This document shows positions 11,558 through 28,739 of a DNA stretch of 64,000 bases, piece after piece. The notes under the pieces are model-generated. The model did no database searches, was not told the origin of the DNA, and worked only from the letters and a program-made list of their open reading frames with translations. Source of the DNA: Formivibrio sp. (GTDB lineage: Bacteria; Pseudomonadota; Gammaproteobacteria; Burkholderiales; Chitinibacteraceae). The number at the start of each line of letters is the position of its first letter. The stretch's first letter is position 1. The translations under genes were made by a program, and so were the position numbers. The DNA is taken from assembly GCA_031291275.1 (NCBI GenBank), contig JARLJJ010000327.1:1-64000 (forward strand). The letters run 5' to 3'.

Positions 11558-12316
11558 TTAGGGCAGTCGGCTGGCAGCGGCCATCTTGCCGATCAGAATG
11601 CTGGGAGAAACCCAGTCGACCAGGTCGTCGAAATAGTTTTCGGCCAATGGATCGGCATCATGGACGAAAGGATGATCGACAAAGCTGGTGTCATTGTTGG
11701 CATTTTCCAGCTCGTCTCCTGCCAAGTTTCCCAGGCGTGTTCCGCCGCTCGGGCCATAGGCACCGCGCAGGTTCTTGCCGTGCGAGACAATGACAGCCAC
11801 GGCAGGAATGCCGCCCAAAGTACCTGCTTGCGGCAATATCGTGATGTCGCCAACAGAGCAGATGGCGAATGAAACCGCTGGATCTGCTGCGGGAATACAG
11901 GTGGCAGAGGGGCCAATGGTTGCGTTGCTGGTATCGGCAAAATAGCTGGTCACGCGATAGCTGTAGCGTTTTCCCCAGGCATCAAGTTCTTTCACCCCGA
12001 GCGTGGCCCAAGGCAGTACGCCATCGATATAAGTGCAATTACCCGTGACGCCGCTGCGTTCCTCCTGCCCGGCCAGTGTTGCCGTATTGGCGAGTGCTGG
12101 ATTGGCCGGGCAGGGTAAGTGGCCATTGCTTAGCGCGAAACCGATCAGGGCATCGCGGACCTCATGCAAGGCTTGCCGGGTTTCTCTTATCCGGTTGGCT
12201 TCAATCTGGCTCAGGTAAGCCCCCAGCATGCCTGACAGCATCAATCCGGCAATGATCAGTACGATTGAAATCTCCACCAAGGTGAAACCAAGATCTTTTT
12301 TCATGCGTGGAATCAT
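11558..12316 (-). CDS. Prepilin-type pseudopilin (MSHA-like operon)
   Basis: A 252-residue protein with a class III prepilin leader: short basic start, cleavage after Gly, then FTLVEISIVLIIAGLML with Glu at +5. The globular part has an LPCPANP motif, a Cys pair, GVLPWATLG, then DAWGKRYSYRV and a C-terminal DDLVDWVSPSIL. It is probably a minor pilin or pilus-associated protein inserted in the inner membrane. Its ATG overlaps the stop of the upstream gene (ATGA), which supports the start at 12316 over a second ATG at 12304. Its globular domain resembles that of the upstream gene product. It is the last gene of the operon. Confidence 0.85.
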   Translation of the reverse strand: MIPRMKKDLGFTLVEISIVLIIAGLMLSGMLGAYLSQIEANRIRETRQALHEVRDALIGFALSNGHLPCPANPALANTATLAGQEERSGVTGNCTYIDGVLPWATLGVKELDAWGKRYSYRVTSYFADTSNATIGPSATCIPAADPAVSFAICSVGDITILPQAGTLGGIPAVAVIVSHGKNLRGAYGPSGGTRLGNLAGDELENANNDTSFVDHPFVHDADPLAENYFDDLVDWVSPSILIGKMAAASRLP

Positions 12317-13248
12317 TTTTTCTGGATGGCCATCGTGCTGCAGTCATAACGCAGCAAGGTTTCCCAGGCATTGCGATTCAGCCAGTCTGAATCGATGCCA
12401 TACATTTCCACGCTGGGCGGGGTGCCGATGCACCCACCCTCCTGTGCCGGGGGATAAGGCGGGAGAGGATATTTCTTTTTTAGTGCCACCGGGTATTCCG
12501 CCACTGCGCGTTGCAATACTTTGGGCAGAATATCTGCTGCGGTGATGACCACGAGTTGGTCGTTGACCAGAAGCGTGCCGGTTGCGTTGGTCAATGGCCC
12601 GTTCAAGCGTGTAATCGTTGGGCTGGTGCTGGCATTGTTGTAGCTGCCGTAGTGTTCAAGGTAGTTGGCTGGCGTGATTTGCTGACTCGCGTTGTTGCGT
12701 ACCTGCCCGGCAAGCAAACTGCCGGGAGCAAACAGGATTGCAATGGCGCCGGGGTAGGCGGTTGAACCGCCGTTGGCAAATGCGTGCAGGTTATAGGGCT
12801 GGGCGGTATTGCTGTTCAGGGCGGCCGTGTTGCTGTCGTGAAATGGGCTTACCACCATGTACCAGAGTGTTTCGCCGGAACCGTCCACCAATTTGGGCAG
12901 GCCGAGCGTATTCCAGGGTAAGCGTCCAATGCGCCGGGCATTGGTATTACAACTGTCATCGCTTGCGGTTCCCGGCCAGCCTTCATATTCCTCTCCAGGT
13001 GCATGCAGATCGGGGCAGGGAAATTCACCCGGACGACTTCGGTTGTAGCTGGTCGCTTTTTGCGACAGCGACCAGGCGATCAGCGAGAGCTTGGCTTGGG
13101 CAAGTGATTGTGTGGTGATTTCGGCTTGTTGTGCCAAGTTGCGTGGTCTGGCATATACCCCGATCAAGGCAAGCGAAAGCATGATGGACAGCACGAACAT
13201 CAGGAGCAACAATGCCGCACCGCGCGAGCGGGTGTGAATCCATCGCAT
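12313..13248 (-). CDS. Pilus-associated membrane protein with PilX/GspK-like N-terminus (MshP/MshQ position)
   Basis: A 311-residue protein. The N-terminus is RGAALLLLMFVLSIML, a hydrophobic helix without the FTLVE leader, as in PilX/GspK-like minor pilins. The rest contains FPCPDLHAPGEE, a Cys, IGRLPWNTLGLPKL, LWYMVVSPF and a C-terminal Cys-containing tail. The segment from PCP through LPW to ITAADIL aligns by eye with the downstream pseudopilin, so the two look like paralogues. The start at the ATG at 13248 has AGGAG just upstream; the track ORF start is 48 bp too early. It follows the PilP-like gene by 4 bp. Confidence 0.75.
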   Translation of the reverse strand: MRWIHTRSRGAALLLLMFVLSIMLSLALIGVYARPRNLAQQAEITTQSLAQAKLSLIAWSLSQKATSYNRSRPGEFPCPDLHAPGEEYEGWPGTASDDSCNTNARRIGRLPWNTLGLPKLVDGSGETLWYMVVSPFHDSNTAALNSNTAQPYNLHAFANGGSTAYPGAIAILFAPGSLLAGQVRNNASQQITPANYLEHYGSYNNASTSPTITRLNGPLTNATGTLLVNDQLVVITAADILPKVLQRAVAEYPVALKKKYPLPPYPPAQEGGCIGTPPSVEMYGIDSDWLNRNAWETLLRYDCSTMAIQKK

Positions 13249-13252
13249 GGAC

Positions 13253-13576
13253 TTACTCCTTGTCTGGCTGGCGTCCGGCTGAATAAATCTCGCCACTGGC
13301 GGCGTCCCAGCTTTCTCCTGGTTTAACGCGCCTAGGTGGCCTTGCCGGATCGAGTTGACCGTTTATCCAGTACATCGTTTTGGCGCCGTCTCGATGCATT
13401 TCGCCGTTGAAGTGATGCAAGGCGTAGGTGACAACTTCCGTTGGGGATGAGGCAATGGGCGGTATGCTGCGATCCAGTTCTGCGCGTTGCTGCGGGGTAT
13501 AAAACAGACGGCCCCATGCACCTTGGACCGGTGGGATTTGCACGAGCACTAAACACAAGCCAAGTCGGTAAATCAT
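13253..13576 (-). CDS. Small exported pilus-assembly protein (MshK/PilP-like position)
   Basis: A 107-residue protein with a signal peptide (MIYRLGLCLVLVQIPPVQGA) followed by WGRLFYTPQQRAELD, a segment often seen at the start of small periplasmic proteins in pilus-assembly operons, and a C-terminal VKPGESWD stretch. The ATG at 13576 overlaps the preceding stop (ATGA) and is clearly better than the track start. By position after PilM/N/O-like genes it should be the MshK/PilP counterpart that links the inner-membrane platform to the secretin; the sequence itself is too short to prove this. Confidence 0.7.
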   Translation of the reverse strand: MIYRLGLCLVLVQIPPVQGAWGRLFYTPQQRAELDRSIPPIASSPTEVVTYALHHFNGEMHRDGAKTMYWINGQLDPARPPRRVKPGESWDAASGEIYSAGRQPDKE

Positions 13577-14190
13577 GGTGTGACACCTGTTTTTCCTGTT
13601 GCAATAGCACTTGGCGCGATGGAAAGCCAATCGTAATCGCACTCGACGATCAACCGCGCTGCGGGTTCTCGCGGCCGGTCGATGTTGCAGCGCGTGGCGA
13701 CCAATGCTCCTGATATTTGGCTCAATGCGTGGTGGACGCGAGAAAAATCGCCTTCATGCAAGGCGCGATAGCTTAGGGTCATACGACTGGAATAAAGCGC
13801 GGAGTTTCCGGCGGGCTTAGCATATTCCAATGGGCGTTGTGGTTCGATGCGGTAGTGCATCGCGTAGGCTGGATTGGCTTGCTGGATGGCTGTGAGTTTT
13901 TCCACCCATTCCAGGCGGTGTTCTCCTTGGCCAAGCATGCCGTATTGCTCCAGCTCGTGATAGCGTTGCTGGTTCGCCTGGGCATCATGCCAAGCGCTGC
14001 GCGCAGATTGCACGATACTGTGGGTGGCATCGAGTTGTTCTTGCAAAGGCCGTAATTGGCTGCGGGAGGTATGCACCTGTTCCTGTGTGAGCAGCAAGGT
14101 CGATCCTGCTACCAGGATGGCGGCGACCAGCCCGATCAGATTGGAGCGAATCAGATAGACGTCCTGCCAGACGTAATTTTGCAGGCTCAT
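13573..14190 (-). CDS. PilO/MshJ-like inner-membrane pilus assembly protein
   Basis: A 205-residue bitopic protein: a short cytoplasmic start, one membrane helix (about residues 17-36, NLIGLVAAILVAGSTLLL), a coiled-coil stretch rich in Gln/Glu (about 40-85), then a small alpha/beta domain. This is the PilO/MshJ/GspM plan, which dimerises with the PilN-like partner and aligns the platform with the secretin. It overlaps the upstream gene by 4 bp and the downstream gene by 4 bp. Sequence identity to MshJ cannot be judged here. Confidence 0.7.
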   Translation of the reverse strand: MSLQNYVWQDVYLIRSNLIGLVAAILVAGSTLLLTQEQVHTSRSQLRPLQEQLDATHSIVQSARSAWHDAQANQQRYHELEQYGMLGQGEHRLEWVEKLTAIQQANPAYAMHYRIEPQRPLEYAKPAGNSALYSSRMTLSYRALHEGDFSRVHHALSQISGALVATRCNIDRPREPAARLIVECDYDWLSIAPSAIATGKTGVTP

Positions 14191-15734
14191 TTTCCACCTT
14201 CGTTCTTGGGCGCAATGACAATCTGCAATGCGAACTTGGCCTGGACCATGTCGTTTTCCGGGGAGGAAATACTGCCTTGAGGACGAATATCGAGCGGGGC
14301 ATTCTGCAATATGGTTGTGGTTCGGGGCATCTTTTCCAGTTGCGCCTGCAGTTGGTCAATTTGCCCGAGCGCTGCGCGGAAGTTGCCATTAAAAGCATCA
14401 ATATAACCTGCGATCTCGATAATTTGCCCGCGTCGGGTGATCGTTTCCGGGATGGAAATATTCCTGGAGGCCGGGATTGGAATTTGGGTCCCAGGCAGCG
14501 CCTTCCAGCTGAAATGTGCGATTGTCAGTAACGGATAGTTGGCAAGAATCTGGCTTATCGTTTGCGCGGTATCTTCCACATCGGGCCAGTTGGCCAGGTA
14601 TTTTCGGTCGAGCTCAACCGCATCTTTCATGGCTTCCGGCTGACTGCCGCGGAGGGACCGAATTTGGGCGCTGACTTCTTGTTGATCGGCTGCTGCAATC
14701 TGCAATGCCCGATGGGTTTGTCTCATGGTTGATTGCAAATGCAGGGTTTCAGCATGATTTTTCCAGCCCAGTAACGCCCCGGCAAGGAGGATCAATGCAG
14801 CGGTCCAATTGAGCGCCCGGCCGAGTTGGCGCAGACGGTGATAATGTCCAGCTGCCGCTGGCAGGTAATGATCTTTAACTTGGCCACGGGCAATGGCTAG
14901 CAAGAGCAGAGTTTCCCAACGCATGCACTTGTCGGGGAATCCTAGCATCGAAGCGAGCGTGTTGACGGTTCCGACCCGGGCATGGATGTGCGGGATTTGC
15001 TCATGCAGGGTTTGTTTGAATGAATCGGCCAATTGCACGGGATCTTCCGCATCGGTTAGCAGGAGTACGTCCAAAGGGTCATGCCGATTCAATGCGTGCA
15101 AATGGCTCAGATACTGGTGCGTGCGATGTGCCTCTTCAGCAAGATGCACGCCATGTATTGCCTTGTCTGCATCGGGCAATAAATTACCTAGGCGACTGAA
15201 ACGCAGGCCTTGTGCCGTGAAGTAACTCTGGCGCCAGTAGCCCGGTTCCACATGGCTGAACAGCAGTAGATGGGGTTGGTCAATGCGCAGCAATTCACCA
15301 CAAGCCAAGGCAACGGAATGAATGCCTGCAATCGCACATTTTTCTGCCAATAGCGTGTCGATTATCCGATCCAATGGTTCGCGTCGGGTCAACGCCGAAA
15401 GCATCAGCGTATTTTGTCCTTCCCGTTGACCTTGATTTACCGCTATCCGCCGATAGGGTGTCGAGTGATAGCTATGATCCAGCTTGCGAGCACACAGGGC
15501 GCGTTGATCCGCACCGGAGAGCCGCGGGACTGATTCAACATGGAAGTCCTCTTCTGCCCAATCAACCAAAACATGGAAACTGGCACGATGCCATTGTCGA
15601 GCCAGCGTTTGCAGTGTGGATAGTTCAGTTTCATCCAGGCTTAGATCGGCCAGAAGCTTGGCCGTGTTCCGGTTGGCTTGGTGGATGCTCAGCCGCGTCT
15701 GGGTCAGCAGCAAAATGACGGTTGGCATAGTCAT
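14187..15734 (-). CDS. MshI-like PilM/PilN-type pilus biogenesis protein
   Basis: A 515-residue protein. The first 300 residues look like a cytoplasmic actin-like (PilM/GspL) domain, though the nucleotide motifs are weak. A membrane helix follows at about residues 310-330 (WTAALILLAGALLGW), then a coiled coil and a periplasmic ferredoxin-like domain as in PilN. It therefore appears to join the PilM and PilN roles in one chain, as MshI and GspL do. It overlaps mshG and the PilO-like gene by 4 bp each. Confidence 0.72.
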   Translation of the reverse strand: MTMPTVILLLTQTRLSIHQANRNTAKLLADLSLDETELSTLQTLARQWHRASFHVLVDWAEEDFHVESVPRLSGADQRALCARKLDHSYHSTPYRRIAVNQGQREGQNTLMLSALTRREPLDRIIDTLLAEKCAIAGIHSVALACGELLRIDQPHLLLFSHVEPGYWRQSYFTAQGLRFSRLGNLLPDADKAIHGVHLAEEAHRTHQYLSHLHALNRHDPLDVLLLTDAEDPVQLADSFKQTLHEQIPHIHARVGTVNTLASMLGFPDKCMRWETLLLLAIARGQVKDHYLPAAAGHYHRLRQLGRALNWTAALILLAGALLGWKNHAETLHLQSTMRQTHRALQIAAADQQEVSAQIRSLRGSQPEAMKDAVELDRKYLANWPDVEDTAQTISQILANYPLLTIAHFSWKALPGTQIPIPASRNISIPETITRRGQIIEIAGYIDAFNGNFRAALGQIDQLQAQLEKMPRTTTILQNAPLDIRPQGSISSPENDMVQAKFALQIVIAPKNEGGK

Positions 15735-16927
15735 CTTATTTTACTGATCGTATCGAAAACGGGGCTCAGAACCGACGACATGATCCAGGCAAGCATGAGC
15801 CCGAGAGTCACGGTGAGCACGGGTTCGATCAATATCTGGATGCGCTCGATCGATTCTTTGACATCGCGATCATAAAAATAGGCGACATTGAGCAAGGCAG
15901 TATCCAGTGCGCCGGTGCTTTCCCCCACGCGTAGCATGCGCAGTACCAGTGGCGGAAACAGTCGCGCTTCCTTAAAACTCGCAGTGATGCCCATGCCTTC
16001 ACTGATGCGAAGCACGAGATGATCCAGCGTGTCGGCAACTTTTACATTTCCTGAGATGCCGCCCGAGATTCGCAAGCAATCCAGGACGGGTATCCCTGCG
16101 GCAAACAGCATGGCGAAAACATTGGCCAGTCGCGCCAGAATAATCTTGTGCAAAATCGGACCGATCAGTGGCAGACGAAGCTTCCAGCCGTCCACCCGTC
16201 GTCGGAATGCCCGGTTGGTGTGCAGGCGCAGTTTGATGAGCAGGAAGAAACCGAGTGGCAGGGCAATCAATACCCAGCCGTGGTGGGTTAAAAAGTGGGA
16301 AACGGCCAGCAAAATGCGCGTATTCAGCGGCAGGGTCTGGCCCATGTCCTTGATGAAATCGACCAGCTTGGGGACCAGGTAAATCATCATGAACATCATG
16401 ACGCTAAAAACTAGCAGCCCGACAAATGCGGGGTAGAGGACAACTTTTTTGGCTTGTGTGGCGAGTTCGTCTTGCCACTTGAGTGTTTCCGTCAGGCGTT
16501 TGAGCACTTGCGGCAACTCGCCGCTGGTTTCTCCGGCATGGATCAGATTGATGAATACGCTATCGAATACTGCAGGATGCGTGGCCAATGCCTGTGAAAA
16601 TGAATGCCCGCCTTCAATGGCTTCAACAAGGCTGGCAAGGATTTCACGAAAGCGCGGATGTTCGATACTGTCGCGTAAATCAATCAGGCTTTCAATCAGT
16701 GGCACGCCTGCGCGGAGCAACTGTTCCAGATGAAAGCAGAAGGTGATTAAGTCGCGTCGAAGAATTTTGCCCAATCTGTGTCGAGCGCCCTGACTTGGCT
16801 TGGCCCGGATCAGAGTCAAGCCGATGCGGCTCAGGCGTAAATCCAGATCGACCAGATTACTGGCATCCATCTGTCCCTGATCGATGCGGCCTTGTGCGTC
16901 GATGGCACGGTAGCGGTACTGCATCAT
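15731..16927 (-). CDS. mshG: Pilus inner-membrane platform protein (MshG, GspF/PilC family)
   Basis: A 398-residue polytopic protein with two GspF repeats, each a helical bundle plus membrane helices. Motifs are QLLRAGVPLIESL with HAGETSGELP in the first repeat, and LFAAGIPVLDCLR with RVGESTGALD in the second. It is the platform that couples the MshE ATPase to pilin insertion. It overlaps mshE by 4 bp and the MshI-like gene by 4 bp. Confidence 0.9.
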   Translation of the reverse strand: MMQYRYRAIDAQGRIDQGQMDASNLVDLDLRLSRIGLTLIRAKPSQGARHRLGKILRRDLITFCFHLEQLLRAGVPLIESLIDLRDSIEHPRFREILASLVEAIEGGHSFSQALATHPAVFDSVFINLIHAGETSGELPQVLKRLTETLKWQDELATQAKKVVLYPAFVGLLVFSVMMFMMIYLVPKLVDFIKDMGQTLPLNTRILLAVSHFLTHHGWVLIALPLGFFLLIKLRLHTNRAFRRRVDGWKLRLPLIGPILHKIILARLANVFAMLFAAGIPVLDCLRISGGISGNVKVADTLDHLVLRISEGMGITASFKEARLFPPLVLRMLRVGESTGALDTALLNVAYFYDRDVKESIERIQILIEPVLTVTLGLMLAWIMSSVLSPVFDTISKIR

Positions 16928-18627
16928 GCAACTCGACTGGTCAGGTCGACGATTCGGGTAACTTCATCGAGCGAGGTTTCGCCGTGCAGCACCCGCTGGC
17001 AAGCGTCGTCTGCCATGGATTGGAACCCTGCAGCGGCTGCTGCCTGTGCGATCTCGTGTGAAGTTGCACGCTGAGCGATCAACTCGCCCATCGCGCTATT
17101 CATGCGCAGTAATTCCATCACGGCCAAGCGTCCCTTGTAGCCGGTATGTGCGCAATGAGGGCAACCTTGTGCACGCAGGAGTGTGGCCGGATTTGCTTCC
17201 GAAAGCGCGAGCAGGCGACGTTCCAGATGGTCGGGTGTATAGGGTGTGCAGCAGTGTTTGCACAGTTTTCGGATCAGCCTTTGGGCCACGATGCCAATAA
17301 TGTTGCCGGCCATGATTTCCGGAGAAATGCCCAAATCGAACAAGCGGGGAATGGCGCCGATAGCCGATGGCGTGTGCAGGGTCGAATACACCTGATGTCC
17401 GGTCATCGCCGCGCGGAATGCCATTTCTGCCGTTTCTTGATCGCGGATTTCACCCACCAGGATCACATCCGGGTCCTGACGCATCATTGAGCGGATGCCA
17501 GTGGCGAAATTCATTTTTACCACTTCGTTGATGGATGTCTGGCGGATCAGCGGGATGGGATATTCCACCGGATCTTCCAGTGTCATGATGTTGATTTCGG
17601 GTGTATTGAGGTGGTTCAGGATCGAATACAGCGTGGTGGTCTTGCCTGAACCGGTAGGCCCGGTCACCAGCAGAATCCCTTCCGGACGAGCGACCATCAG
17701 GCGCAGCGAGCGGAGGTTATCCATACTGAGTCCCAGACTATCGAGAGGGACGAGGCCTTTCTGGCGATCGAGAATTCTCAGTACGATATTTTCTCCCCAC
17801 GTGCAGGGTTGCGCTGAGACGCGAAAATCCAGAGGACGCCCTGCCAGGGTCAGTGATATCCGGCCGTCTTGCGGTGCGCGAGTTTCCGCGATATTCATGC
17901 CGGAAATGACTTTCAGTCGGACAACCATGGCTGGCCAGTACATGCGATGCAAAGCGCGGATCTGCCGTAGTACGCCGTCGATGCGGTAGCGAATGCGCAC
18001 AAACGATTCTTCCGGTTCGAAATGAATATCGGATGCGCCTTGCGTTACTGCATCGGTGAGCAGAGCATCAATCAGACGTACCACCGGTTGGCTGTATCCT
18101 GCCGATGCCATCTGGATACTCGCCCAGTCAATCTCGCCGGTTTCAATTTCATGCAAGAGGCCGTCGATTGAAAGTTCGACGCCGTAATATTGGTCGATAG
18201 CGCGAGCAATGTCTGATTCAGAAGCCAGCTTGATTTCCCATGTGAAAGGTTCTTGCAGGTGCTGCCGCAGTTGGTCAATGGCCGCCAAGTCGTTGGGATC
18301 GGTCATCGCGATGATCAATTTCTTGCTATCGGTATCCAGTGCCAGCGGCAAGACCCGCAGACGCTTGGCCAATTCCTTGGGAACGCGACGAAGCGCTGCC
18401 GCGTCAATAATGACCTTGGAGAGATCGACGCTTTGCTGTCCAAGGTTTTCTGACAACGCATCCCGCAATACCGCTTCAGAAATAAAACCTAATTTCATCA
18501 AGGTCTTACCCAGCGGTTTGCCGGTCTGGCGCTGCTCTTGCAGGGCGATGTGCAGTTGGTCAGGCGTAATCACCCCTTTGTCCGCGAGCGTCTTCCCCAA
18601 TGGCAGTTTGGTCGATGGCGCGTTCAT
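16924..18627 (-). CDS. mshE: Pilus extension ATPase MshE with N-terminal c-di-GMP-binding domain
   Basis: A 567-residue GspE/PilB-type hexameric ATPase. Walker A is GPTGSGKTT, the Walker B/Asp-box region is VILVGEIRDQETA, and a tetra-Cys zinc motif (CKHCC ... CPHC) follows. Residues 9-32 and 38-61 form two 24-residue copies of the MshEN motif (LGKTL, then G-I, then L-AL) separated by exactly 5 residues, the layout described for c-di-GMP binding in Vibrio MshE. Both copies have Pro in place of the usual leading Arg, and the second ends in Asn instead of Gln, so affinity may differ. Overlaps its neighbours by 4 bp. Confidence 0.92.
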   Translation of the reverse strand: MNAPSTKLPLGKTLADKGVITPDQLHIALQEQRQTGKPLGKTLMKLGFISEAVLRDALSENLGQQSVDLSKVIIDAAALRRVPKELAKRLRVLPLALDTDSKKLIIAMTDPNDLAAIDQLRQHLQEPFTWEIKLASESDIARAIDQYYGVELSIDGLLHEIETGEIDWASIQMASAGYSQPVVRLIDALLTDAVTQGASDIHFEPEESFVRIRYRIDGVLRQIRALHRMYWPAMVVRLKVISGMNIAETRAPQDGRISLTLAGRPLDFRVSAQPCTWGENIVLRILDRQKGLVPLDSLGLSMDNLRSLRLMVARPEGILLVTGPTGSGKTTTLYSILNHLNTPEINIMTLEDPVEYPIPLIRQTSINEVVKMNFATGIRSMMRQDPDVILVGEIRDQETAEMAFRAAMTGHQVYSTLHTPSAIGAIPRLFDLGISPEIMAGNIIGIVAQRLIRKLCKHCCTPYTPDHLERRLLALSEANPATLLRAQGCPHCAHTGYKGRLAVMELLRMNSAMGELIAQRATSHEIAQAAAAAGFQSMADDACQRVLHGETSLDEVTRIVDLTSRVA

Positions 18628-19868
18628 TGCTGCGCACTCATCAGGGCGGTGATGCGTTGCTCTGCCACGGCGCGCTCAAAATGACCATTGCCGAGTGAAA
18701 GTGCCCGGTGATAGTAGTCGGCTGATAGCTTTCCCTGCCCGATGTGATCCAGGCTTACGGCCAGATTGAATGCCAGATCGGCATTGTCTTGATCATGGAC
18801 AAATGCCTGGAAAAACTGCTCTTGCGCTTCATGCCAGCGATTATTGGCGGCGTAATATTGGCCAAGCAACAGAGGCGAGCGATTCCGATCATTGTTCTGT
18901 AATAGCTGCATTTCAGTCGCTGCGGAGAGTGCTTTGGGATTGAGTAGCAGGAGCCCGGTTTGGGCTTCTTGGTCTTGCGGGTTGAGCGCAAGCAAGCGCT
19001 GATACCACTGCATGGATTGGGTGGTTTGACCTTGTCGAGCCGCAATTGCTGCGAGCCCAAGCAGAGCATCACGGTTGTTGGCATCGCTTGCGAGCATGCG
19101 GCGATACTGTTTTTCTGCGCCGATGAGGTCACCGCGTTGCCATGCTTGCCAAGCATTTTGGAGTGGAGCAGGAATCGGGGCTTCATCGATATTGCGTTCT
19201 ATCTTGGGTGAATTTTCAGAAGAGGGCTGTGCTTCGATATATCTTGCTTTATCGTCGGCTGGTGGACGGGATATCTGCTCTGTGAGGGATGTCGTTGCCG
19301 GTGGTAACGGGATGGATATCTGCGCAACGGGAGCGGATGACTGTGTGGATGCCGCTTGATCTCGATTTTCGTTTTCTTTTTGAATGGTCGTAGCGGCGGT
19401 TGAGACGGGACGCTCCGCAGTCTCAACGGCGCGGGTGGTGGTGGGTTCTGCAAAAAAAGGCTGCTGTTGCCACCAGAACCCTGCACCTATTCCCCCCAAG
19501 ATAATGGCACCCGCCGGTATCCACGTACGGAGCAAGTGACGCGGCGATTTTGCGCGCGAAATCGGCAACGTGGGCGCAGCGGCTTGGGCGATGGAATGGC
19601 TGTCTTTCCTCGGATTAGAAACCTGATCCTGCTTTTCAACCTTTATGGCTTCCCCGAAAGGACTATCGGAAAGGAGCCCGCTTTTTTCTTCATGGGCAGC
19701 CAGGTCGCCGGTTGGTATGGGATGTGCCATCGTCGTGTGCAGAGTCGATTCTTGCTGCGAGTTTGGATACGCCTGCGTGGGAAATAGCAGGGTGTCTGGC
19801 ATGCGCGGCGGCACTTCAACGAGTTGCATCTGACCGTCTGTCTTTTTCAGCGCATGCAGCAGATTCAT
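18624..19868 (-). CDS. mshN: TPR-containing pilus biogenesis protein (MshN-like)
   Basis: A 414-residue protein with a cytoplasmic N-terminal region of about 110 residues, one membrane helix (about residues 115-133, PAGAIILGGIGAGFWW), a Ser/Thr/Gln-rich linker, and a C-terminal TPR array (about residues 230-410, including a GDLIGAEKQYRRML repeat). The fold and its place between secretin and ATPase genes match MshN, a probable scaffold that links inner and outer membrane parts. Its ATG overlaps the mshL stop by 4 bp. Confidence 0.82.
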   Translation of the reverse strand: MNLLHALKKTDGQMQLVEVPPRMPDTLLFPTQAYPNSQQESTLHTTMAHPIPTGDLAAHEEKSGLLSDSPFGEAIKVEKQDQVSNPRKDSHSIAQAAAPTLPISRAKSPRHLLRTWIPAGAIILGGIGAGFWWQQQPFFAEPTTTRAVETAERPVSTAATTIQKENENRDQAASTQSSAPVAQISIPLPPATTSLTEQISRPPADDKARYIEAQPSSENSPKIERNIDEAPIPAPLQNAWQAWQRGDLIGAEKQYRRMLASDANNRDALLGLAAIAARQGQTTQSMQWYQRLLALNPQDQEAQTGLLLLNPKALSAATEMQLLQNNDRNRSPLLLGQYYAANNRWHEAQEQFFQAFVHDQDNADLAFNLAVSLDHIGQGKLSADYYHRALSLGNGHFERAVAEQRITALMSAQQ

Positions 19869-21715
19869 GGCTGACTCCGGGAGGGTAAAGGTAAATTACC
19901 GCTGTGAAAGGCCGAGAGTTCCTGGTCTTGGGGCGAGTCGAAGAAATGCTGGTCTGGAATCAATGGCCTGAAATTGGCTAGTTCACTTTCCAGTCCGTTT
20001 TGCCTGATGACAATGGGTTTCAGAAAAATGACCAGCTCTATTTTCTTTACCTTGTCGTCGCGATAGCTGAACAAATCGCCCAGAAATGGGAGACGGGAAA
20101 GCCCTGGCAAACCGTTTCGTTCATTCGATTGTGAATCCTGAATCAGACCGCCCAACACGGCAATTTGCCCGCTGGGAATCTTCAGCGTGGTATCAAATTC
20201 GCGTACTTGCAGGTTGGGAACCAGGCTTTTTACCCCGAGGTTGCCCGTTGCAGAAACAATGGCGACGGCGGGATCTTCCACATAACTGCTGATATTGGTA
20301 ATGGTGGGCCGGACATTCAGCAAGATAGTGCCGGATTCGCTGATCTGCGGTGTGACCTGCATGACCAATCCGACGGGGACCGTATGCAGTTCGCTGGTAT
20401 AGGTACGACTGGTCACTTCCCCCGAATCATTCTTGTCTTCTTCTATTTTCAGGCGGAAATACACCTGTTCATCGACGACCTTCATCACGGCAGTCTGATT
20501 ATTGAGCGCCATGACCTTGGGGCTGGACAGCACCCGGGTGCGGCCGAACTGCTCAAGAAATTTCAGCGTGATGCCGAAGGTGCCATTGTCATAGCTCACC
20601 AAACCCAGTGCACTGCTGCTGAATTGGGCGGCGCTGAGTGCTTGCGCTGCCGACCAGTATCCGCCAGCTGCAGCGCGGGCCCAATCCACGCCGGACTGAT
20701 ATTGGTCTGATAGGGTCACTTCGACCACGGTCGCTTCGATCATCACTTGCCGCTGTGCCGCCGCCTGGATGAAAGACAAGAATTCGGCCACTTTTTGCTG
20801 GAGCCGATGACTGGCGCGTATCGTCAAGGTGCCCGTTTCTGGATGAATGATGACCAGGTTTTTTTCCGGTGGTTCTGGCCTTCTTCCTGCGATGCTCGCT
20901 TGCTTGGATTGAAGTGCCATGGTTTCGGCAGTGGTTTTTTCCGATTGCGCTACGGTCTTTTCGATCTTGGCCAAGCGGTCGGCGATGACCAGTGCGGAGG
21001 CCATGTCGCCGGTACTCATCGCCGGGCGGGCAATCTGGCCCGCCTGCTGTGCCGTATTGATGACGGGTGGACTATTGTCCGGCCGAATATCCAACAGTTC
21101 CTTAAGATTGGTTTCCAGGCGTTTCCAGAATTGATGCTGAATTTCACTTTCAATGGCGGTGTTGGAACTGTTGCTGCTTCCGTAAGGTGAATCGCTGCCA
21201 CTGGTTGCAACCGAGTTGACGATATTCACGGTCGACTTGGTGTTGCGGGCGATGTTGAAATAATCGACGCGATAAGTTTTCAGGTAGGGCGTGTCCGGTT
21301 TGACACTGAGGGTGCCTTCTTCCAATGCCCAGCGGATATCGACTTGCTGAACGATGCGATTCAGGATTTGCGGCAAGGTCTGGTTGATGGCGCTGAGCGT
21401 GACATTGCCGCTGACATCCGGGTGGATGTCGAGATTGATCTTTGCATCGCGAGCCAGGGCAAACAGCAGATCCTTGACCGCCAGATTGCTGACTACGACG
21501 CTGAATGTATCGGTATGCGGGGTGGGGGCAGGCTTGCTGGGTTCTGGCAGCAGGGCTACCGGATCGGGTATGCGATTGTCCGATGACGCGGGGAGGCTAA
21601 GGTGCTGGCTTGCTTGCTGCAGGGGGGCGGGTGCGGAAGAACAGCCCCCGAGAAAAGGGATGAGCAGTAAAAGTCGACAGAATAATTGGACCGATTCCAC
21701 CCGAAACTTTCCCAA
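19865..21715 (-). CDS. mshL: Outer-membrane secretin of the MSHA-like pilus
   Basis: A 616-residue lipoprotein secretin. The signal peptide ends in a lipobox (FLGGC). An N0/STN-like domain covers about residues 70-150 (LLFALARDAKINLDIHPDVSGNV), and the secretin domain lies at about 320-590: VMIEATVVEV, RVLSSPKVMALNNQTA, VPVGLVMQVTPQI and GQIAVLGGLIQDS, ending LPFLGDLFSYRDDKVKK. It forms the pilus exit pore. No ATG is available near the start: the TTG at 21715 gives a basic n-region for the signal peptide, and a GTG at 21700 with GGGAAAG upstream is the alternative. First gene of the nine-gene operon. Confidence 0.9.
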   Translation of the reverse strand: MGKFRVESVQLFCRLLLLIPFLGGCSSAPAPLQQASQHLSLPASSDNRIPDPVALLPEPSKPAPTPHTDTFSVVVSNLAVKDLLFALARDAKINLDIHPDVSGNVTLSAINQTLPQILNRIVQQVDIRWALEEGTLSVKPDTPYLKTYRVDYFNIARNTKSTVNIVNSVATSGSDSPYGSSNSSNTAIESEIQHQFWKRLETNLKELLDIRPDNSPPVINTAQQAGQIARPAMSTGDMASALVIADRLAKIEKTVAQSEKTTAETMALQSKQASIAGRRPEPPEKNLVIIHPETGTLTIRASHRLQQKVAEFLSFIQAAAQRQVMIEATVVEVTLSDQYQSGVDWARAAAGGYWSAAQALSAAQFSSSALGLVSYDNGTFGITLKFLEQFGRTRVLSSPKVMALNNQTAVMKVVDEQVYFRLKIEEDKNDSGEVTSRTYTSELHTVPVGLVMQVTPQISESGTILLNVRPTITNISSYVEDPAVAIVSATGNLGVKSLVPNLQVREFDTTLKIPSGQIAVLGGLIQDSQSNERNGLPGLSRLPFLGDLFSYRDDKVKKIELVIFLKPIVIRQNGLESELANFRPLIPDQHFFDSPQDQELSAFHSGNLPLPSRSQP

Positions 21716-28115: not shown

Positions 28116-28739
28116 TCAGGGCAGGATGCGGATGCCCAGGCTGATCTGGCCGGATCGGTCCCAGCAATCCACAGTGTTGTCATAATCGCTGGTTGCGGTG
28201 CTGCCTTTGCTGGCGCTACTGCGCACGATACCGGTATCCGGCGCGCCATCGTCCATGACCCGATCAAGCTGACAGACGAAACGAGCATCCATGGCGTTGG
28301 TTGCAATACCGCCCACGGTTAGATAATTTGTGTTTGCATCGAAGTGTGCGACGGCCGTGGCAGAGGTGTCCGAAATGCTCCAAGGTTGGCTGAATGCGCT
28401 TTGCGTGTCGGCATTGGTCAGGATACTGGCGTTTTGCAGCACCGCCAATGCGGCAGCGGTTTCGATGGCGGAATCAAGCTGGCCGTTTTTCGTTCCCGTG
28501 CCACCGGTGACTGCCGTACCCGGCGCGGCAGTCCAGCCATCGCCGGGATAGCTGCCGTATTTCTCGTGATAAATATTGAATGCCGTGGCCACTTTGTTGT
28601 ACTGCGCTTGGGCATTTTTGATCTTTGCGCCATCGATCAAATCCCTGCCCTTGAATGCCATTCCCATAATCAGTCCGATGACGACTAAAACAATTGCCAG
28701 CTCCACGAGGGTAAAGCCTTGTTGCCTGTTTGAATGCAT
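28116..28739 (-). CDS. Type IV prepilin-like protein, separate from the pilus operon
   Basis: A 207-residue protein with a textbook prepilin leader: seven-residue MHSNRQQ, cleavage after Gly, then FTLVELAIVLVVIGLIMGM with Glu+5. The N-terminal helix continues through KGRDLIDGAKIKNAQAQYNKVATAFN, followed by YPGDGW and a Cys pair (FVCQ ... VDCWD) that probably closes a C-terminal loop. An excellent ribosome-binding site (GGAGGT) precedes the ATG, fitting high expression. It could be the major pilin for the MSHA-like machine encoded about 6 kb away, or a pseudopilin of another system. Confidence 0.88.
   Translation of the reverse strand: MHSNRQQGFTLVELAIVLVVIGLIMGMAFKGRDLIDGAKIKNAQAQYNKVATAFNIYHEKYGSYPGDGWTAAPGTAVTGGTGTKNGQLDSAIETAAALAVLQNASILTNADTQSAFSQPWSISDTSATAVAHFDANTNYLTVGGIATNAMDARFVCQLDRVMDDGAPDTGIVRSSASKGSTATSDYDNTVDCWDRSGQISLGIRILP

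What the first reader, a model, noticed from the sequence alone, without database searches (positions are those of the whole stretch)
11558..13248. Two adjacent homologous pilus proteins, one having lost the prepilin leader signature
Both proteins share an order of motifs: PCP near the start of the globular part, a Cys, LPW-TLG, an aromatic strand, an AVAV/AIAI-containing strand and a terminal segment ending near IL. Only the downstream one has the cleavable FTLVE leader; the other has a PilX/GspK-like helix. This suggests a tandem duplication with division of labour, possibly at the pilus tip.
Basis: seen in the sequence. Interest (0 to 1): 0.5.

Follow-up and report, generated by a model that had tools for sequence, protein, structure and literature searches.

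The report
Paired homologous pilus-tip pilins, one Glu5-less
Two neighbouring genes at the end of an MSHA-like type IV pilus operon encode true relatives that arose from an old duplication; one keeps the normal pilin helix and the other lacks the glutamate that docks pilins, so it probably sits at the very tip of the pilus, and in some relatives it carries a lectin domain.

Summary
Observation confirmed and strengthened. The two minus-strand ORFs (P0002, 13248-12313; P0001, 12316-11558) are homologous along nearly the whole of P0001. Family profiles align over 206-214 columns (99.7-99.8%, E 1e-27). The match stays strong with the whole N-terminal helix removed (E 3e-20), whereas the third prepilin matches only in the helix. 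P0002 has not lost its leader: the -1 Gly and basic n-region are conserved, and only Glu5 is gone, as in GspK and S. sanguinis PilA. The pair closes an MSHA-like operon (secretin-TPR-ATPase-GspF-I/J/K-like-P0002-P0001) across Proteobacteria. All 36 loci found with P0002 have P0001 next door. P0002 varies greatly in size (about 240-1100 aa), usually carries a second copy of the beta half (lost in this genus), and in 7 relatives holds a legume-lectin-like module. In three Burkholderiales a P0002-type Glu5-less helix is joined to a P0001-type head. Best reading: a tip/initiation pair, with P0002 as Glu5-less cap or adhesin and P0001 as adaptor to the shaft. The duplication is ancient, not local. 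The probable major pilin (28739-28116) lies 6.4 kb upstream. New variant of a known kind; function untested.

The parts
11558..12316 (-). P0001: Glu5-bearing minor prepilin (MKKDLG|FTLVE), 252 aa; GspG-like first half
   Evidence: PF07963 over cut-off; TIGR01710 match below cut-off; conserved neighbour of P0002; AlphaFold pLDDT 90.7
12313..13248 (-). P0002: Glu5-less homologous minor prepilin (RSRG|AALLLL), 311 aa; head homologous to P0001; C-terminal second beta repeat lost in this genus
   Evidence: no Pfam/NCBIfam match; AlphaFold pLDDT 81.7
13253..13642 (-). small exported protein in the MshK/PilP-like position
   Evidence: no family match; conserved position in relatives; name by position only
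13573..14190 (-). inner-membrane protein in the MshJ/PilO-like position
   Evidence: conserved in order; name by position only
14187..15734 (-). inner-membrane protein in the MshI (PilM/PilN-like) position
   Evidence: conserved in order; name by position only
15731..16927 (-). GspF/PilC platform protein (MshG-like)
   Evidence: PF00482 E=8.6e-50
16924..18627 (-). extension ATPase with c-di-GMP-binding MshEN domain (MshE-like)
   Evidence: PF00437 and PF05157 over cut-off; NF053729 67 bits, cut-off 38
18624..19868 (-). TPR protein in the MshN-like position
   Evidence: TPR families; order L-N-E-G
19865..21715 (-). MshL-type secretin
   Evidence: TIGR02519 254.6 bits, cut-off 250.2
28116..28739 (-). 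third prepilin (QQGFTLVE), probable major pilin of this system, displaced 6.4 kb upstream of the operon
   Evidence: homologues with E < 1e-37 are encoded directly downstream of the pair in nine relatives; N_methyl over cut-off

Best explanation
P0002 and P0001 are the tip-initiation pair of an MSHA-like type IV pilus, descended from one Glu5-bearing pilin by an ancient duplication. Shown: the two heads are homologous; P0002 keeps the cleavage Gly but has a hydrophobic residue instead of Glu5; the pair goes with MshL-type machinery; P0002 is the size-variable, sometimes lectin-bearing partner. Inferred: both are processed by the general prepilin peptidase; the pair starts filament assembly with P0002 as the outermost subunit, which needs no Glu5 because no subunit sits above it; P0001 couples it, through its Glu5, to the shaft of major pilin (probably 28116-28739); P0002's exposed C-terminal region is the contact or adhesion surface; extension is driven by the c-di-GMP-responsive ATPase. 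In this genus P0002 has lost its second beta repeat, so its tip is reduced.
For: Head homology with control. Invariant -1 Gly, non-Glu +5. All 36 loci found with P0002 have an adjacent P0001 (34 same strand, 2 convergent). In a 185-genome class sample, 32 of 34 genomes with a strong P0002 (E<1e-30) have a strong P0001; in the other two P0002 lies at a contig edge or the neighbouring P0001 match is partial. MshL-type secretin 6-14 kb upstream in most of them, and elsewhere in the genome in all 7 relatives where the pair stands apart from the operon. P0002 240-1100 aa against P0001 about 210-320. Legume-lectin domain over the Pfam cut-off in one P0002 and a homologous segment in six others, with no hit outside P0002-type proteins. 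Chimeras with P0002-type helix and P0001-type head in L095, L107, L118: the helix, not the head, marks the slot. Published rule: GspK and S. sanguinis PilA lack Glu5 and are placed at the tip; tip complexes are capped by a Glu5-less subunit (PMC5207764, PMC9934059, PMC10191384).
Against: No experiment. Roughly a third of P0001 loci have no P0002 beside them, and three sampled genomes have P0001 without P0002, so P0002 is not universally required. In S. sanguinis the Glu5-less subunit (PilA) and the lectin subunit (PilC) are different proteins, so merging both roles is an extrapolation. The P0002 model is of moderate confidence and has no PDB match. The window's own P0002 has neither lectin nor second repeat.
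Confidence: 0.62

Rival explanations
1. P0002 is a stop/retraction subunit or membrane-anchored regulator (GspK/XcpX-like length control) rather than an adhesive tip: its bulk and lack of Glu5 stall the filament at the secretin.
For: Glu5-less GspK members limit pseudopilus length (PMC5207764); P0002 can exceed 1000 aa.
Against: Lectin modules in seven relatives make most sense if the head reaches the surface; P0002 is small (about 240-310 aa) in several systems.
Confidence: 0.18
2. The pair belongs to a type II secretion-like device and P0002 is a GspK proper, with P0001 as major pseudopilin (GspG-like).
For: P0001 matches the GspG model over residues 10-123 (all 49 members); P0002 shares GspK's Glu5 loss and large size.
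Against: GspG score 36.6 against a cut-off of 88.85; no GspK family match; secretin is MshL and the ATPase has MshEN; a separate probable major pilin travels with the operon.
Confidence: 0.1
3. The resemblance is convergence or generic pilin similarity, not duplication.
For: All type IV pilins share the helix and a beta sheet.
Against: Head-only profile match E=3e-20 while the third prepilin gives nothing; natural chimeras with interchangeable heads.
Confidence: 0.02

Closest known systems
GspK/XcpX/PulK minor pseudopilin (T2SS tip complex GspHIJK)
   Same: Prepilin with cleavage Gly but hydrophobic residue at +5; larger than the major pilin; one per minor-pilin set
   Different: No sequence match to any GspK model, no PDB fold match; head homologous to its partner P0001; gene lies before, not after, its partner; no H, I, J counterparts in the operon
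Streptococcus sanguinis PilA/PilB/PilC tip complex and modular pilins (PMC9934059, PMC8179133)
   Same: Glu5-less minor pilin encoded with an operon partner; a ConA-like lectin grafted on a minor pilin; tip location proposed
   Different: There the Glu5-less pilin (PilA) is small and the lectin pilin (PilC) has Glu5; here one protein combines both in some relatives; different lineage; no sequence match found
MSHA pilus (MSH, T4eP) of Vibrio cholerae
   Same: MshL secretin, TPR protein, MshEN-bearing ATPase, GspF-like platform protein in the same order
   Different: No MshM gene between secretin and TPR gene; only this pair of prepilins in the operon; several genomes carry two MshL-type secretins, e.g. 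G140 with one at each side of the pair
GspG/T4bP pilin heads
   Same: P0001 first half matches TIGR01710; best fold match is the ETEC T4b pilin 9iuf (prob 0.97)
   Different: Below family cut-off; Foldseek E only 0.04, TM about 0.4; extra C-terminal FDDxVxWLSxxxLxxRMxxAGxLP motif

Membership tests
Type IV prepilin (class III leader), P0001 | Gly-1, hydrophobic +1, Glu+5, hydrophobic helix | tested here: met
   PF07963 22.5 bits, cut-off 21.2; FTLVE; invariant Glu in family
Type IV prepilin (class III leader), P0002 | Basic leader ending in Gly-1 followed by hydrophobic helix | tested here: met
   Gly-1 in 36/36 aligned members, leaders such as RAPQRG|, PSAQRG|, HTRSRG|
Type IV prepilin (class III leader), P0002 | Glu+5 / N_methyl family score | tested here: not met
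   +5 hydrophobic in the P0002 clade members whose leader could be placed; no PF07963 match
Type IV prepilin, P0002 | Processing by prepilin peptidase | not testable with these tools
   two Peptidase_A24 genes exist in the genome; cleavage itself needs an experiment
GspK family | Sequence match to GspK models | tested here: not met
   no match in Pfam/NCBIfam for P0002, none in Pfam for its relatives
GspK family | GspK fold (helical insert between first strands) | tested here: inconclusive
   AlphaFold model pLDDT 81.7 shows no large helical insert there and has no PDB match
GspK-like function | Glu5-less, larger than major pilin, one per cluster | tested here: met
   311 aa against 207 aa candidate major pilin; single Glu5-less member in the operon
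GspG major pseudopilin, P0001 | TIGR01710 over cut-off | tested here: not met
   36.6 bits, cut-off 88.85
MSHA pilus | MshL secretin | tested here: met
   254.6 bits, cut-off 250.2
MSHA pilus | MshE with MshEN, MshG, TPR MshN in order | tested here: met
MSHA pilus | mshM (mandatory in the model of PMC6668835) | tested here: not met
   secretin and TPR genes overlap by 4 bases, no gene between; rest of genome not searched for it
MSHA pilus | mshA major pilin | tested here: inconclusive
   28116-28739 is a linked prepilin family but was not compared with MshA
Modular pilin (adhesive domain grafted on pilin) | Extra domain of known binding fold | tested here: not met
   not in the window's P0002; in relatives met: PF00139 in L123 over cut-off, homologous segment in L078, L102, L106, L126, L128, L130

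The most novel reading that the evidence does not exclude
A two-pilin tip module, unrelated in sequence to the GspHIJK set and without a family model for P0002, initiates and arms a widespread MSHA-like pilus: a Glu5-less helix defines the tip slot, and its head is exchangeable, being extended with lectins, trimmed, or replaced by a copy of the neighbouring pilin's head.
Probability: 0.4. Interest if true: 0.66.

Novelty: new variant of a known kind. Interest (0 to 1): 0.52.

Why it matters
The tip of MSHA-type pili is uncharacterised (a 2023 review calls MSHA too poorly characterised to tabulate, PMC10191384). This pair is a concrete, genetically simple candidate, present in about one in five of 185 class-level genomes sampled, with no family model for P0002. 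The natural chimeras offer a test of the Glu5 rule: if the helix alone sets position in the filament, heads can be swapped without changing the slot. It also extends the modular-pilin idea (lectin on a minor pilin) to an MSHA-like pilus of diderm bacteria.

Tried and rejected
Generic pilin similarity: rejected by the helix-free comparison with the third prepilin as control. Recent local duplication: rejected by the tree. Single origin of all Glu5-less copies: a tree forcing them together is worse (p-AU 0.024), but the quick method, long branches and a group named after seeing a first tree make this weak; three narrower tests did not finish. P0002 as a GspK family member: no family match. Frameshift explanation for the short P0002: the same-genus relative L046 ends at the same motif (YDCxSMxIQKK), so the shortening is inherited. 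The search for related loci with the broad alignment A1 failed for lack of conserved stretches; a narrower alignment worked. My leader finder misplaced the Gly in a few proteins (L109, L138, L121, L124, L066, L071), so automatic counts are slightly off and were read by eye. Foldseek of P0002 against PDB gave nothing. PDB sequence searches with the profiles matched only the pilin helix region for P0001 and nothing meaningful for P0002.

Full report
What is there. On the minus strand, an operon runs from 21715 down to 11558: MshL-type secretin, TPR protein, extension ATPase with an MshEN domain, GspF-like platform protein, three proteins in I/J/K-like positions, then P0002 and P0001. Genes overlap or abut throughout. 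P0002 has a strong ribosome site (AAGGAG) before the ATG at 13248; P0001's ATG overlaps the P0002 stop.

Homology. BLASTP of the two window proteins gives E=4e-7 over the first 130 residues. With 31 sequences in each family, profile-profile alignment gives 99.7% and E=8e-27 over 214 columns. An independent set from named genomes gives 99.8% and E=1e-27 over 206 columns. The control is the third prepilin family. P0001 against it aligns only in the helix (58 columns), and without the helix nothing remains. P0001 against P0002 without the first 50 mature residues still gives 99.3% and E=3e-20. So the heads, not just the helices, are homologous.

Leader. P0002 is not leaderless. In 36 of 36 aligned relatives the residue before the hydrophobic helix is Gly, preceded by a short basic stretch often ending QRG; what is missing is Glu at +5. 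That is the published signature of GspK and of S. sanguinis PilA. These are placed at the tip, because Glu5 pairs with the N-terminus of the subunit above and a terminal subunit has none above (PMC5207764, PMC9934059, PMC10191384). Two prepilin peptidase genes exist elsewhere in the genome.

Anatomy of P0002. Most relatives are longer than the window's 311 aa (about 240 to 1100 aa, median near 475 in the first set), while P0001 stays near 240. The usual C-terminal part repeats the protein's own beta half (W...N.W..YAV...C...A..I.PG..L.GQ.R...YLE...ND): hhalign of part 2 against part 1 gives 97.6% and E=2.7e-12. The window copy and its same-genus relative L046 stop just after W..N.W, so this repeat was lost before they split. 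The P0002 of L123 carries a legume-lectin domain over the Pfam cut-off. A model built from four such segments finds seven proteins in more than 100 loci, all of them P0002-type or, for L126, the partial ORF directly upstream of P0001. The lectin assignment of the other six rests on homology to L123 and on the motif GFTFAI...LGY...IGIEFDT. L130 also has peanut lectin as its best, weak PDB match (E=0.021).

Co-occurrence. All 36 loci fetched through P0002 have P0001 as direct neighbour: 34 on the same strand and 2 convergent, L056 and L060. Searching the other way, about two thirds of P0001 loci with enough flank have P0002. In 185 class-level genomes, 34 have a strong P0002. Of these, 32 have a strong P0001, including several where P0001 lies on another contig or far away (G116, G157, G061, G092). 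In the remaining two, P0002 lies at a contig edge or the neighbouring P0001 match is partial. MshL-type secretins lie upstream in most. In seven relatives where the pair stands alone, such a secretin is elsewhere in the genome. Thus the pair goes with this machinery.

Evolution. In the tree of heads the main P0002 clade (58 rows) is separated with support 100, so the duplication predates the spread over Beta/Gammaproteobacteria, Magnetococcales and Desulfocapsa. Alphaproteobacterial clusters hold two or more homologues that all keep Glu5 (L151, L136, L162), which suggests, without a root, that Glu5 was lost in P0002. Three first-position proteins (L095 Janthinobacterium, L107 Pseudoduganella, L118 Burkholderiaceae MAG) have a P0002-type helix (27-36 bits on the P0002 helix model, about 0 on P0001's) but a P0001-type head (119-151 bits against 23-41). 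In L118 the two proteins are 57% identical. Either the head was overwritten by gene conversion, or a fresh copy of P0001 acquired the helix. Either way, the Glu5-less helix is what persists in that gene position.

Structure. P0001 is modelled well (pLDDT 90.7); its best PDB match is the ETEC T4b pilin (prob 0.97, E 0.04). P0002 is modelled moderately (81.7) with no PDB match. The element order is the same: long helix, LPW strand, Y.V strand, A-V/I-A strand, short helix, ND/DD strand, final helix.

Major pilin. The isolated prepilin at 28739-28116 has its closest homologues directly downstream of the pair in nine relatives (E below 1e-37), so it is likely the shaft subunit of this pilus, moved away in this genome. 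Other prepilin clusters in the genome (contigs C193, C477) are separate; their system was not identified here.

Mechanism. Shown: homology, Glu5 loss with retained Gly, linkage to MSHA-like machinery, size variability and lectin grafts in P0002, helix-head chimeras. Inferred: peptidase processing, tip location of P0002, P0001 as Glu5-bearing adaptor, adhesion by the P0002 head, c-di-GMP control of extension through MshEN.

Verdict. The system is a new variant of a known kind (Glu5-less tip minor pilins; modular pilins) in an MSHA-like pilus lacking an mshM gene in the operon. No paper describing this pair was found in the library searched, which does not hold most subscription journals.

Noticed in passing
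window 28116-28739 (-): Isolated prepilin next to leuS; its relatives sit directly downstream of the pilin pair in nine other genomes, so this is probably the relocated major pilin of the operon.
   Followed up: partly
L118:3-1527: Adjacent pilin genes with 57% identical products but different helices (one Glu5-less): a natural helix-head chimera or very recent duplication.
   Followed up: partly
L154:8911-13748, L167:8942-13694: Tandem arrays of four homologous pilins of this family (Thiotrichales, Thiomicrorhabdus), one Glu5-less and three with Glu5, two of them near 470-500 aa.
   Followed up: no
L056:12094-14215 and L060:2879-4972: The two pilin genes are convergent instead of tandem, and the pair lies away from the assembly operon.
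   Followed up: no
G168:C2:42407-54572: Several copies of pilin heads of this family close together in a 1.5 Mb genome, one within an open frame of 2621 codons.
   Followed up: no
L164:4225-7362: 1044-aa Glu5-less homologue in an Alphaproteobacterium, flanked by two Glu5-bearing homologues; its helix is not of the P0002 type.
   Followed up: no
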